Shown: positions 48,124 to 52,039 of the stretch, in pieces
Position numbering within the stretch: position 1 is the first letter of the stretch
Layout: each line of letters begins with the position of its first letter
NCBI GenBank assembly: GCA_903905455.1
Contig: CAIVGN010000222.1
Location: forward strand, 1 to 52,782
Reading direction: 5' to 3'
DNA length: 52,782 nt
Source of the DNA: an uncultured Archangium sp.
Lineage (GTDB): Bacteria; Myxococcota; Myxococcia; Myxococcales; Myxococcaceae
The notes under the pieces: model-generated
Seen by the model: the letters and a program-made list of their open reading frames with translations, nothing else
Databases searched by the model: none
Told to the model about the DNA's origin: nothing
Position numbers and translations under genes: made by a program

Positions 48124-49158
48124 TCAGTAGGCCAGCAGCGCCTCGAGGTCTCCGTACACCTCGAGGCCGCCGCAGGCGCCTTCGTCCTCGAACACCGCCT
48201 CGCCCGAGAGCGTGGTGAGCCGCACCTGCACCTTCGCGTCGATGGACTCGACCACCCGGCGGTGCATCTGGGTGCGCACCGGGGCGTGCAGCAGGCCGCC
48301 GGCCACGCGCTCGGTGCTCAATTCGAGGCGGTGGGTGCGGTTGCGCAGCGTCCAGTGCACGAAGCGGTCGTCGATGGCGAGGTGCTCGGTGCGCGAGCCG
48401 GCGTACGTCGCGAAGCGGTGCAGCACGCCGTCCAGCCACAGGCCCACGATGAAGCCGCGGAACGAGCTCGCCTTGCGCCCGGTGACGGCCCGGGTCACCG
48501 AGTCGAGGGCCGAGGCCACGCGCCCGGGGGGCATGGTGGGCACGATGGCGATGGAGGCCGAGAGGCACACCTCGGGCCGCGAGAAGTGGTTGGTCTGCAT
48601 CCACACGTAGGCGCTGGGGAAGGCGGCGCCCCAGTCCTTCTCGATGTAGCCGAGGCCGCCGTCGAACGAGACGGGCGCGCCGTCGATGGTGAGCGTGCCG
48701 GTGAGCGCGTGGGAGAAGCTCACCAGCCCGTGGCTGCACTCCATGAAGGGCACGAGGCCGAAGGGCCCCATGATGCCCGGCGAGAGCGTCGTCACCGGCC
48801 AACCGGTGAGCGGGCGGCCGCCGTTGAAGGTGAGCTGCCCGGTCAGCCCCTCGAGAGACAGGGACAGGCCGGCGGCGCTGAAGTGGTTGTCGCCGACCTG
48901 CACCTCGAAGCGGTCTGCTTCGGCGCGAAACGCGGCGCGCGGGAACGAGTGAAACCAGCTGCGGTTGCTCACCCCGTCGAGCACCTGCACGAAGGCCTCG
49001 GCCTCGCCGTGGGGCCCGAGGAACAGGCCGGGGATGAAGGCCCAGCGGTGCTGGCGGTCCGCCGACACGCACTTGAGGTACCAGCCCTCGAAGTAGCGGC
49101 GGGTGCGCCCGAGGCCGTGGAAGCCCTCGGGGTGAAACGTCGACGTCAGGTAGTTCAG
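48124..49158 (-). CDS. Tocopherol-cyclase-like protein (start region probably frameshifted or non-ATG)
   Basis: 344 residues if counted from a CTG at 49158. Homology signs: FHPEGFHGLGRTRRYFEGWYLK (residues about 9-30; read in two pieces, FHPEGFHG and YFEGWYLK), AFIPGLFLGP, GYIEKDWGAAFPSAYVWMQTNHF and later GDLEALLAY; these match the tocopherol cyclase/lipocalin-like family. Starting at the GTG at 49068 would lose EGWYLK, so that start is unlikely. The expected ATG overlaps the stop of the deiminase gene (49161-49163) but reads ATG-ATC-TGA, and the needed frame is one base off. So either a frameshift or error lies in codon 2-3 or a CTG start is used. Bacterial members are of unknown activity; the fold binds hydrophobic molecules. 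It is probably cytoplasmic or envelope-associated. Confidence 0.78.
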   Translation of the reverse strand: MNYLTSTFHPEGFHGLGRTRRYFEGWYLKCVSADRQHRWAFIPGLFLGPHGEAEAFVQVLDGVSNRSWFHSFPRAAFRAEADRFEVQVGDNHFSAAGLSLSLEGLTGQLTFNGGRPLTGWPVTTLSPGIMGPFGLVPFMECSHGLVSFSHALTGTLTIDGAPVSFDGGLGYIEKDWGAAFPSAYVWMQTNHFSRPEVCLSASIAIVPTMPPGRVASALDSVTRAVTGRKASSFRGFIVGLWLDGVLHRFATYAGSRTEHLAIDDRFVHWTLRNRTHRLELSTERVAGGLLHAPVRTQMHRRVVESIDAKVQVRLTTLSGEAVFEDEGACGGLEVYGDLEALLAY

Positions 49159-49159
49159 A

Positions 49160-50992
49160 TCATCGACCCGAGGTCCACCACGTGGGCTTCGTCGCGTCGC
49201 GGCGCGAGTTGGTCGCGCAGTGCAGCTCGCCGGAGAGCCGGTGGTAGAGGTTCCATTCTTCGACCCAGGCCACCTTGATGCCGATGGGCTGCAGGGCCAT
49301 CTCCAGCTGGGTCTTGAAGATGTCCTTGCCGTCGATGATGGGCCCGTGCGGTTCGGGCGCGCCGAAGGTGTCGTGGGCGAAGACCAGGCCGTTGACGGTG
49401 CCCGGCTGGTACGCGAGCGAGGTGCCCATCACCGGCTCGTGGAGGTAGGGCACGCGGATGATCTCCGCGTCGGTGAGCCCGGTGGCGGTCTTGATGATCT
49501 GCACCTGGGTGTCGACGTGGGCCGCGGTGGCAGCGCTCTCGGCCATCACGTCGACGTTGGCCAGCACGTCGGAGATGCTCACGTCGGCGGCGCGCTCGAC
49601 GCCCTGGTCATCGACCCACTTCTGGCCGACGAACATCTTCACCGCGCCGTTGCCGGCGGTGACCTGGGCCTCGAGCATCTGCTTGGCGAGCGCCGGGTCG
49701 TTGACCAGCATCACCCAGCCGCGCGGGCTGGGGGCCTTCACGAAGCTGACGGTCTCGTCGATGTGGCCCACGAGGAGCCACTCGGTGTCTACGTACACCG
49801 ACGGCTGCATGCCCTGCGAGACGAGCAGCTTCTCGAGCGCGGGGTCGGTGCCGAAGCGCGTGGTGTTGCCGCGGATCTGCCGGCCCAACGGGTAATCCAC
49901 GCCGCCCAGCGAGAAGGGCGGAATGGTCTCGAGGTTGCCGTAGGAGTTGAGCGAGTCGCTGTCGGCGTTGTGATGCGCCAGGTCGAAGGCCACCACGCCC
50001 GCCGCGTCACGCCCGCGGAACTTGGCGAACACCACCTTGCCCGCGTCGCGCAGGGCGTCGTTCGGGTAGTCGGGGTAGTAGACGTTCGACGAACGGATGA
50101 AGACGTCGATGACGTGGTTGCCCGTCCTGGTGGGCATCGACATGTAGGCCACCTCGAAGAAGTCCTGCGTCCACTGGTCGGCGAAGGGCGTGAAACCGTC
50201 GAAGGTGGCGTCGCCGTCGACGTCGGTCAGGGGCGTGGCGGTGACGGTGAGCGCGTCCTGCAGCGAGGTGCGCATGATGCGCGAGTCGGGGTCGGTGGCG
50301 AAGGCGGTGACGAAGACCTGCTTCTCGTCGGCGAGGTGGTGCTGGGTGATGACCGGCGCCACGCGCAGCTTCACCTCGTCGCTCTTGCCCGCGATGCTCA
50401 GGGTGACCGTCACGAAGCCGTCCCACCTGGCGGTGTCGCGCACGATGTCGGTGGCCTCGATGGCCAAGGTCGCGCCGGCCCGCACTTCTTCGGTGGTGAG
50501 GCGGTCGTGCTGCCAGTCGAACCAGGCGTAGGCGCCGTTGCGCTTGATGAAGAGGTTCACGTGGCCCGCGGCCCTGGGGTCGACCAGCAGGCTGCCGGTG
50601 GTGGCGTCGGGGGCCGAGACCCACGCCTGCACGCCCAGCGGCGCGAGGTCGAGGAGGTCGAGCTCGCCGTTGATCACCAGGTCGGCGCCGTCGTTGCACT
50701 TGGAGAGCTCGTCGTCGACCAGCAGCGCGCCGGCGCCGTCGGTGCTCATGCAGCGCAGCGAGTCGTCGTCGATGTTGGCCAGCATGATGGCGCCGTGGGT
50801 GGCGTCCCAGGCGGTCTTGAGGGTGGTCTCGGTGGTGTCGTCGAAGTCGATGGTGCCGTTGCGGTTCGCGTCGGCCACCAGCACCACCAGCGGGAGCACC
50901 GTCACCTTGCCCAGGGCGGCGCCGAAATCGGTTGCGGGCTTCTCACAGCCCACGGCCAGCACCGCGCCCATCACCCACGCCAGGCGCTTCAT
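49160..50992 (-). CDS. Protein-arginine deiminase (PAD) family lipoprotein
   Basis: 610 residues. Signal peptide MKRLAWVMGAVLAVGC with a lipobox Cys16. Residues about 35-210 match the PAD middle domain, starting with an EF-hand-like loop DANRNGTIDFDD (41-52) and followed by GAIMLANIDDD, as in animal PADs. Residues about 212-610 match PAD_C. All catalytic residues of PAD4 have counterparts: Asp277 (DQWTQDFFEVAYM), His410 and Asp412 (VGHIDETVSFV) and nucleophile Cys592 (GELHCATNSRR). SLNSYGNLETIPP and YPLGRQI also match the enzyme. The N-terminal immunoglobulin-like PAD_N is absent. PADs convert protein arginine to citrulline in a calcium-dependent way; export to the envelope points to an extracellular target. 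It overlaps the HEAT-like gene upstream (ATGA) and abuts the tocopherol-cyclase-like gene. Activity is inferred only. Confidence 0.93.
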   Translation of the reverse strand: MKRLAWVMGAVLAVGCEKPATDFGAALGKVTVLPLVVLVADANRNGTIDFDDTTETTLKTAWDATHGAIMLANIDDDSLRCMSTDGAGALLVDDELSKCNDGADLVINGELDLLDLAPLGVQAWVSAPDATTGSLLVDPRAAGHVNLFIKRNGAYAWFDWQHDRLTTEEVRAGATLAIEATDIVRDTARWDGFVTVTLSIAGKSDEVKLRVAPVITQHHLADEKQVFVTAFATDPDSRIMRTSLQDALTVTATPLTDVDGDATFDGFTPFADQWTQDFFEVAYMSMPTRTGNHVIDVFIRSSNVYYPDYPNDALRDAGKVVFAKFRGRDAAGVVAFDLAHHNADSDSLNSYGNLETIPPFSLGGVDYPLGRQIRGNTTRFGTDPALEKLLVSQGMQPSVYVDTEWLLVGHIDETVSFVKAPSPRGWVMLVNDPALAKQMLEAQVTAGNGAVKMFVGQKWVDDQGVERAADVSISDVLANVDVMAESAATAAHVDTQVQIIKTATGLTDAEIIRVPYLHEPVMGTSLAYQPGTVNGLVFAHDTFGAPEPHGPIIDGKDIFKTQLEMALQPIGIKVAWVEEWNLYHRLSGELHCATNSRRDATKPTWWTSGR

Positions 50993-51945
50993 CGCGCACC
51001 TCGCGCCGGGTTGCGTTCGAAGCGATGTTGCAGGGCCTCGAGCCTCGCCTGCACCTCGCCGTTGGCCGCGGCGCGGGCCGTGGCGATGAGGGCCGGGGTC
51101 TCGGGGGCGTCGATGCCCATCAGCGCGTCGGAGGCCGAGTCACGCAGGGCGCTGTCGGTGGTGTCCACGAAGACGGCGAGGGCCCCGCGGGCGGCCGTGC
51201 GGCGCAGCGCTTCGAGCTCCGAGGCGGGAGCGGCGTTCGGAATGGCCAGCGCCCAGGACGAGGCGAGGCGGCCCAGCGAGGTGACCACCAGCGCGCCGCG
51301 GGCGGCCGGGGGCTGCGAGGCGGCGACGTCGGCCAGCGCGGTCACCGCGCCGAGGCGGCGACACGTGCCGAGGCCCGCGAGCACCGCGTCTTGCGACGCG
51401 CCCGGGGTGGTGGCGAGGCGCGCGAGGAAGGCCACGTCTTCATCGAGGCCCAGCTTGCCCAGGGCCTCGGTGGCCGCGCGCACGTCGTAGAAGGCCGTGC
51501 CCTGCTGCACCAGCGCCCGGTAGCTGGGGGCGGCGAGCGGGTCCTTCAGGTCACCCGAGGCTTCGATCAACCCGGCGCGCAGCGCGGTCAGCGCGCTGGC
51601 CTTCACCGGCATGGAGAAGCGCTCGGGGTGGAGCACCGGCTCGAGGAACGCGAGGGCGGCGCCCGAGTGCCCCTGGGAGGCCCGGGCCACGTCGCGGAGC
51701 ACGGTGGTCATGGGGAAGAAGCGGCCGCGGCGCTTCGCGTCCAGCGCATCGGCCCGACCGACGACGGAGCGCACCCCGCTGAAGGCCGCCGGAAACTCGG
51801 TGCGCACCCGGGCCAGTTCCTTGTCGAACTGCTGCGAGGTGAGGAGGTCGAGCTTCGGCGGCGCGGAGACGGCGAGCACCTGGGCGAAGACGAGCGACGA
51901 GGACAGCACCAACGAGAGGGGCATCAACCGCAGGGGCAACAGCAT
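50989..51945 (-). CDS. Secreted HEAT-repeat-like protein
   Basis: 318 residues from the ATG at 51945, which is followed by a signal peptide (LLPLRLMPLSLVLSSSLVFA). The mature part is a run of short paired helices rich in Ala and Leu (ATEALGKLGLDEDVAFLARLATTPGASQDAVLAGLGTCRRLGAVTALADVAAS, spelled over about 165-225), the style of HEAT or PBS-lyase repeats. Such proteins act as scaffolds. Its stop overlaps the deiminase ATG by four bases, so the two are cotranscribed, and it may present or regulate deiminase substrates in the envelope. No catalytic motif is seen. The AAA ATPase gene ends 94 bases upstream. Confidence 0.78.
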   Translation of the reverse strand: MLLPLRLMPLSLVLSSSLVFAQVLAVSAPPKLDLLTSQQFDKELARVRTEFPAAFSGVRSVVGRADALDAKRRGRFFPMTTVLRDVARASQGHSGAALAFLEPVLHPERFSMPVKASALTALRAGLIEASGDLKDPLAAPSYRALVQQGTAFYDVRAATEALGKLGLDEDVAFLARLATTPGASQDAVLAGLGTCRRLGAVTALADVAASQPPAARGALVVTSLGRLASSWALAIPNAAPASELEALRRTAARGALAVFVDTTDSALRDSASDALMGIDAPETPALIATARAAANGEVQARLEALQHRFERNPARGAR

Positions 51946-52039
51946 TTCGGGTCGATAGCAGGGGCCCGCCGCGCAGACAAACGCGGTGCTCATGGGGCAG
52001 TGCGTCAGCGGGGCAGAAGAGGACTCGCAACGCCCCCGT

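What the first reader, a model, noticed from the sequence alone, without database searches (positions are those of the whole stretch)
49160..50992. Bacterial protein-arginine deiminase lipoprotein with the full animal-type active site
Asp277, His410, Asp412 and Cys592 match PAD4 Asp350, His471, Asp473 and Cys645 with long surrounding identity (SLNSYGNLE, VGHIDE, GELHCATNSRR), and a PAD_M-like calcium loop (41-52) is present while PAD_N is missing. Known: PADs are best known in vertebrates, with some bacterial homologues reported (cyanobacteria among them); the P. gingivalis enzyme is a different type. A lipid-anchored version in a myxobacterium could citrullinate its own surface, prey or matrix proteins.
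Basis: partly seen in the sequence, partly recalled or inferred. Interest (0 to 1): 0.85.

Follow-up and report, generated by a model that had tools for sequence, protein, structure and literature searches.

The report
Secreted bacterial citrullinating enzyme with partner
This myxobacterial gene encodes a probable outer-surface version of the animal enzyme that turns protein arginine into citrulline, and in most myxobacterial relatives it sits next to a gene for a secreted helical-repeat protein, a pairing I found no report of and one that offers a concrete way to learn what bacteria use citrullination for.

Summary
Window 49160-50992 (-) encodes a 610-residue protein matching Pfam PAD at 1.9e-84. 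All four catalytic residues (D277, H410, D412, C592) are present and invariant in 71 relatives. A complete PAD_M domain precedes the catalytic domain; PAD_N is absent. The lipoprotein call is well supported: 55 of 67 complete Myxococcota relatives carry a PROSITE-type lipobox, none with Asp at +2, and a Cys81/Cys99 pair is all-or-none (62 both, 10 neither, 0 single). The family is known: Cummings et al. (PMC8826395) already counted PADIs in 69 proteobacterial species. The window protein belongs to that non-animal, two-domain branch, with calcium site 2 lost (D369 to R) and sites 1, 3, 4 and 5 kept. New here: PAD occurs in 54 of 195 Myxococcota genomes, and the adjoining ORF (50989-51945, -, ATGA overlap) belongs to a secreted HEAT-repeat family found beside PAD in all 72 readable loci of one set. 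In the phylum-wide search, 44 of 44 partner copies above 50 bits lie next to a PAD, none in 141 PAD-less genomes. Best reading: a calcium-activated extracytoplasmic protein deiminase with a dedicated, translationally coupled partner. Activity, substrate and partner role are untested.

The parts
49160..50992 (-). PAD lipoprotein gene, 610 aa
   Evidence: PF03068 E 1.9e-84; AlphaFold2 mean pLDDT 92.8, best PDB matches human PAD4, E 1.1e-46, TM 0.77
50945..50959 (-). lipobox LAVGC, residues 12-16; predicted lipidated Cys16
   Evidence: PS51257 rule met; 55 of 67 complete Myxococcota relatives also meet it, shuffled controls 1%
50363..50887 (-). PAD_M domain, residues 36 to about 210
   Evidence: profile of relatives aligns with PAD4 PAD_M and PAD_C; Pfam PAD_M alone sub-threshold
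50837..50872 (-). calcium loop, residues 41-52 (D41, N43, N45, D49), at the place of PAD2 site 6
   Evidence: alignment; D125 to N and E131 to D in this site reported for non-animal PADIs (PMC8826395)
50750..50752 (-). Cys81, probable disulfide partner of Cys99
   Evidence: pair all-or-none: 62 both, 10 neither, 0 single in Myxococcota
50696..50698 (-). Cys99, probable disulfide partner of Cys81
49175..50383 (-). PAD catalytic domain, residues 204-606
   Evidence: PF03068 match
50162..50164 (-). catalytic Asp277 (PAD4 D350)
   Evidence: invariant
50093..50095 (-). Arg300 in place of calcium-site-2 ligand D369 of PAD4
   Evidence: R in 70 of 71 Myxococcota and 5 of 5 actinobacterial rows
49757..49765 (-). 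catalytic His410 and Asp412 (PAD4 H471, D473)
   Evidence: invariant
49217..49219 (-). catalytic Cys592 (PAD4 C645)
   Evidence: invariant
50989..51945 (-). conserved partner gene: secreted HEAT-repeat protein, about 318 aa (alternative start at 51993)
   Evidence: next to PAD in all 72 readable Myxococcota loci; 44 of 44 copies above 50 bits in 195 genomes lie next to a PAD; HEAT_2 in 49 of 50 members; AlphaFold2 pLDDT 91.9, all helical
50989..50992 (-). ATGA overlap: stop of the partner gene and start of PAD
   Evidence: sequence; the same -4 overlap, usually with PAD first, in most relatives
51712..51735 (-). partner motif K71-RRGRFF-P78 with invariant Arg73
   Evidence: Arg73 in 50 of 50 aligned partners; related Arg/Pro motif legible in diverged partners

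Best explanation
The gene encodes a genuine protein-arginine deiminase of the two-domain (PAD_M plus PAD_C), non-animal branch, exported by Sec and anchored by a lipid on Cys16, so that it works outside the cytoplasm. Outside the cell calcium is plentiful; calcium bound to PAD_M and to site 1 would order the active site, Cys592 would attack the guanidinium of a protein arginine held by Asp277 and Asp412 with His410 as acid/base, and citrulline plus ammonia would result. Calcium site 2 of animal PADs is gone and an arginine sits at its key ligand position, so activation should need fewer ions. The enzyme is made together with a secreted HEAT-repeat protein from an overlapping gene, and the two form a dedicated pair; the solenoid most likely binds the enzyme and controls or directs it. 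Shown by computation: family, catalytic and calcium residues, export signal, conserved pair. Inferred: calcium dependence, activity on proteins, physical complex. Unknown: substrate and biological purpose.
For: Family and fold. Catalytic residues and the equivalents of PAD4 W347, R374 and V469 (substrate-binding residues, from general knowledge) invariant in 71 relatives. Ligands of sites 1, 3, 4 and 5 kept, site 2 lost (ligands from PMC13023937). Lipobox in 55 of 67 complete relatives versus 1% of shuffles, no Asp at +2. All-or-none cysteine pair as expected of a disulfide. Partner adjacency and -4 overlap, exclusive linkage across 195 genomes, Fisher p 5e-28, correlated divergence, Mantel r 0.70 with shuffles at most 0.38, and in genomes with two pairs each PAD keeps its own partner. 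Gene order is reversed in the window's small clade yet adjacency is kept.
Against: No activity was measured. Lipidation and final location are predicted from sequence. Proof of a physical complex is missing; adjacency could reflect shared regulation only. A few lipoprotein PADs (for example G032) show no recognisable partner, so the partner is not strictly required. The partner profile was built from PAD neighbours, so exclusivity applies to that profile; ten weaker hits (36-44 bits) elsewhere look like ordinary HEAT proteins.
Confidence: 0.75

Rival explanations
1. The enzyme is a nutrient-scavenging deiminase that acts mainly on free arginine or short peptides from digested prey, not on folded proteins.
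For: Myxobacteria digest prey outside the cell (general knowledge); exported enzyme.
Against: The PAD4 R374 and W347 equivalents, which bind the peptide substrate, are invariant; free-arginine deiminases lack PAD_M; a dedicated partner gene is not expected of a simple scavenger.
Confidence: 0.12
2. The pair is an antagonism system: lipoprotein PAD is the toxin, passed to neighbours by outer-membrane exchange or vesicles, and the HEAT protein is the immunity protein in the periplasm, by analogy with SitA lipoprotein toxins and SitI of Myxococcus (from general knowledge).
For: Lipoprotein followed by an overlapping partner gene in most loci; patchy distribution, 54 of 195 genomes; several copies in some genomes.
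Against: PAD and partner are conserved across the phylum with alignable sequence, not polymorphic; order is reversed in the window's clade; no other toxin-delivery features were seen beside the pair.
Confidence: 0.13
3. The HEAT protein is itself the main substrate, for example a scaffold whose charge is tuned by citrullination.
For: Invariant Arg73 in an otherwise fast-changing protein.
Against: The Arg73 loop is modelled with high confidence, so it may be structural; a single-substrate enzyme would be unusual for a PAD.
Confidence: 0.15
4. The protein is a catalytically dead PAD used as a calcium-binding surface protein.
For: None beyond lack of activity data.
Against: Catalytic residues invariant in 71 of 71 relatives.
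Confidence: 0.04

Closest known systems
Two-domain non-animal PADIs of fungi, actinobacteria and proteobacteria (Cummings et al., PMC8826395)
   Same: PAD_M plus PAD_C without PAD_N, conserved catalytic and substrate residues, calcium site 2 replaced; actinobacterial members share the cysteine pair and carry signal-like N-termini
   Different: Myxococcota members carry a lipobox and the HEAT partner, and most keep the site-4 ligand D388 (61 of 71), whereas that paper reports glycine there in fungal and actinobacterial PADIs; no such partner was seen beside the actinobacterial copies read here
Animal and cyanobacterial PADIs (human PAD1-4)
   Same: catalytic tetrad, PAD_M and PAD_C folds, calcium sites 1, 3, 4 and 5
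   Different: no PAD_N, no calcium site 2, exported and lipidated, separate branch in the tree; no cyanobacterial sequence was available here
Porphyromonas gingivalis PPAD
   Same: secreted bacterial protein citrullination by a pentein-fold enzyme (literature)
   Different: PPAD is an extended agmatine deiminase without PAD_M (PMC8826395); centipede venom PADs are of that type (PMC7864903)
HEAT-like repeat proteins (designed alphaRep; CpcE/CpcF)
   Same: all-helical solenoid; weak fold matches to alphaRep binders (best E 2e-3)
   Different: secreted, PAD-linked family with its own Arg/Pro motif; no named family beyond HEAT_2

Membership tests
Protein-arginine deiminase (PF03068) | PAD catalytic domain above curated cut-off | tested here: met
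   284 bits, cut-off 25
Protein-arginine deiminase (PF03068) | catalytic Asp, His, Asp, Cys | tested here: met
   D277, H410, D412, C592 invariant
Protein-arginine deiminase (PF03068) | PAD_M domain | tested here: met
   relatives' profile aligns with PAD4 across PAD_M; Pfam PAD_M alone 14.7 bits, below 24.8
Protein-arginine deiminase (PF03068) | calcium-dependent conversion of peptidyl-arginine to citrulline | not testable with these tools
   ligands of sites 1, 3, 4 and 5 present; no assay possible
Animal/cyanobacterial three-domain PADI | PAD_N domain | tested here: not met
   no hit and no room
Animal/cyanobacterial three-domain PADI | calcium site 2 (E351, D369, N373) | tested here: not met
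   F, R, V in the window protein
Animal/cyanobacterial three-domain PADI | groups with human PADs in a tree | tested here: not met
   separated by a branch with SH-aLRT 97; no cyanobacterial row in the tree
Two-domain non-animal PADI | PAD_M plus PAD_C without PAD_N | tested here: met
Two-domain non-animal PADI | groups with actinobacterial two-domain PADIs | tested here: met
   same well-supported part of the tree
Two-domain non-animal PADI | triple His before PAD_C and Gly at the PAD2 D389 position (traits described for fungal and actinobacterial members) | tested here: not met
   window has QHHL and Asp328; actinobacterial rows here show D, D, G, D, G at that position, so the trait does not define the branch in this data
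PPAD type | agmatine-deiminase-type sequence without PAD_M | tested here: not met
   only PAD and PAD_M found in Pfam
Bacterial lipoprotein | signal peptide with lipobox Cys | tested here: met
   PS51257
Bacterial lipoprotein | lipid on the N-terminal Cys | not testable with these tools
   needs mass spectrometry or labelling

The most novel reading that the evidence does not exclude
The secreted HEAT protein is a cognate regulator of the PAD that presents its invariant arginine (Arg73, in a K-R-G-R..P loop) to the PAD active site as a pseudo-substrate or a self-limiting substrate, holding the enzyme in check until it meets calcium or its target. This would be a dedicated protein regulator of a PAD in bacteria.
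Probability: 0.2. Interest if true: 0.8.

Novelty: new variant of a known kind. Interest (0 to 1): 0.6.

Why it matters
The biological role of bacterial PADs of the animal kind is not established in the literature read here. A widespread exported form with its own conserved partner gives a concrete, testable system, suggests that citrullination outside the cell is common in Myxococcota (28% of genomes sampled carry a PAD), and offers a natural protein that may bind and control a PAD, of interest because human PADs are drug targets.

Tried and rejected
PAD sequences in phages, IMG/VR viral contigs and plasmids: none in phages or viral contigs; four Streptomyces/Embleya plasmids only. Cyanobacterial PADs could not be reached: the cyanobacterial plasmids searched had none and gave no genome centre. 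A first home-made lipobox detector was too strict and was replaced by the PROSITE rule. The tocopherol-cyclase-like gene downstream (48124-49068, -) and the upstream AAA gene were considered as module members and rejected: no homologues beside other PADs. Monophyly of Myxococcota PADs to the exclusion of actinobacterial ones was only weakly rejected (AU p 0.036, quick tree), so an origin of the actinobacterial branch within Myxococcota is suggested, not shown.

Full report
Observation. The ORF at 49160-50992 (-) is exactly as described. Pfam places it in PAD (PF03068) at 1.9e-84, and the closest solved structures by sequence are human PAD3 and PAD4. The four catalytic residues are correctly named and are invariant in fifteen aligned sequences and in 71 Myxococcota relatives. 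Chance is not an issue.

Architecture. Pfam PAD_M alone scores below its cut-off, as already noted for non-animal PADIs by Cummings et al. (PMC8826395). A profile of the relatives, however, aligns with PAD4 from the start of PAD_M to the C terminus at 1e-82. The AlphaFold2 model has mean pLDDT 92.8 and matches human PAD4 over 602 alignment columns (E 1.1e-46, TM 0.77). Nothing corresponds to PAD_N: only about 35 low-confidence residues precede PAD_M.

Calcium and substrate sites. With PAD4 ligands taken from PMC13023937 (that legend prints residue 349 as Glu, the aligned residue here is Gln), sites 1 (349, E353, E411), 3, 4 and 5 are present. Site 2 is lost: E351 is F, D369 is R and N373 is V; the arginine is found in 70 of 71 Myxococcota and 5 of 5 actinobacterial rows. 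Cummings et al. report that sites 2 and 4 are confined to the animal/cyanobacterial branch, with glycine at PAD2 D389 in fungi and actinobacteria; here the equivalent position is Asp in 61 of 71 Myxococcota rows and in the window, so site 4 seems to be kept. Their alignment was not seen, so this is a discrepancy to check. The equivalents of W347, R374 and V469, substrate-binding residues from general knowledge, are invariant.

Export. The N terminus MKRLAWVMGAVLAVG-C satisfies PS51257. Among 67 Myxococcota PADs with a complete 5' end, 55 satisfy it, and several others miss narrowly when read by eye; shuffled N termini pass in 1% (the count of 55 leaves out a spurious hit in a truncated ORF). 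None of the 55 has Asp at +2, the E. coli inner-membrane retention signal (general knowledge), which is consistent with the outer membrane. Cys81 and Cys99 occur together in 62 rows, are both absent in 10 and never occur singly; the seven actinobacterial rows of this branch also have both, while human PAD4 and the animal-like Vibrio and Solirubrobacteraceae proteins do not. This is what a disulfide in an exported protein would give.

Relatives. In the genome search, 54 of 195 Myxococcota genomes carry PAD (23 of 90 genera) against 3 of 198 in a sample of the actinobacterial phylum, and none of 14 control genomes. Named relatives include Polyangium fumosum DSM 14668 and other Polyangium isolates. 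In a tree of 88 proteins the window sits inside a Myxococcota group with L020, L018 and L019 (100), away from human PADs (97), with actinobacterial two-domain PADs nested among Myxococcota. That nesting is only weakly backed (AU p 0.036).

The partner gene. The ORF upstream of PAD in the window (50989-51945) overlaps its start codon by ATGA. Its homologues lie directly beside PAD in 63 of 74 loci of the set by tblastn. Reading the downstream ORF by eye in the remaining loci adds nine, leaving two whose contigs end too early: 72 of 72 readable. In most loci PAD comes first and the overlap is -4; in the window's small clade the order is reversed. Searching all 195 genomes with the partner profile gave 44 copies above 50 bits, all next to a PAD on the same strand, so none in the 141 genomes without PAD (Fisher p 5e-28 for copies above 200 bits). 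The profile was built from PAD neighbours, so this speaks for that family, not for every HEAT protein. Of 57 full-length PADs in those genomes 44 have a partner above 50 bits; about eight more have a diverged one at the expected place, some weak by score; five have none that I could see, among them a non-lipoprotein type. Where a genome holds two pairs, each PAD keeps its own partner. Divergence of PAD and partner is correlated (Mantel r 0.70), as co-inheritance would give.

Nature of the partner. It has a Sec-type signal, about 300 residues and HEAT_2 similarity in 49 of 50 members. The model is all helical, pLDDT 91.9, with weak fold matches to designed alphaRep binders. Arg73, in the motif K-R-G-R..P, is present in 50 of 50 aligned members, and a related Arg/Pro motif can be read in the diverged partners and in a non-myxobacterial one (L092). 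Whether Arg73 is structural or meets the PAD active site cannot be told here.

How it most likely works. Export with a lipid anchor would place the enzyme where calcium is available, calcium would shape the active site, and protein arginines would become citrulline. The solenoid partner, made in step by translational coupling, most likely binds the enzyme to restrain or direct it. Enzyme identity and export are strongly supported; the mode of activation and the partner's role are inferences; the substrate is unknown.

Known and new. The family and its presence in proteobacteria are published. Searches for myxobacteria or Myxococcota with citrullination or protein-arginine deiminase found no relevant paper among open-licence papers. 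The lipoprotein form, its high frequency in Myxococcota, the all-or-none cysteine pair and the dedicated HEAT partner therefore appear unreported, with the caveat that subscription journals were not searched.

Noticed in passing
window 48124-49068 (-): Tocopherol-cyclase-like gene (PF14249, 1.1e-13) directly downstream of PAD; its frame reads back with a cyclase-like start (FHPEGFHGLGRTRRYFEGWYLK) almost to the PAD stop codon without an ATG/GTG/TTG start, so its true start is unclear.
   Followed up: partly
L091 and L094: Vibrio ouci and a Solirubrobacteraceae MAG carry PADs that group with human PADs (97) and score 404-427 bits with PF03068, with acidic site-2 ligands kept (E, D, D): animal-like PADs in bacteria other than cyanobacteria.
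   Followed up: partly
L096 (Corallococcus praedator), G121, G127, G150: A second, divergent PAD type in Myxococcota; in L096 it has no signal peptide or HEAT partner and carries a Pro/Gly/Met-rich insert in the catalytic domain.
   Followed up: no
L097 and L095: PAD domains inside very long open frames (2452 and 1578 aa) in Planctomycetota MAGs.
   Followed up: no
L092: An unassigned bacterium has a lipobox-like PAD with a HEAT protein 9 bases downstream, so the pair may extend beyond Myxococcota.
   Followed up: partly
G139 (L128): A PAD in another sequence context is followed by a HEAT protein without an evident signal peptide, perhaps a cytoplasmic version of the pair.
   Followed up: no
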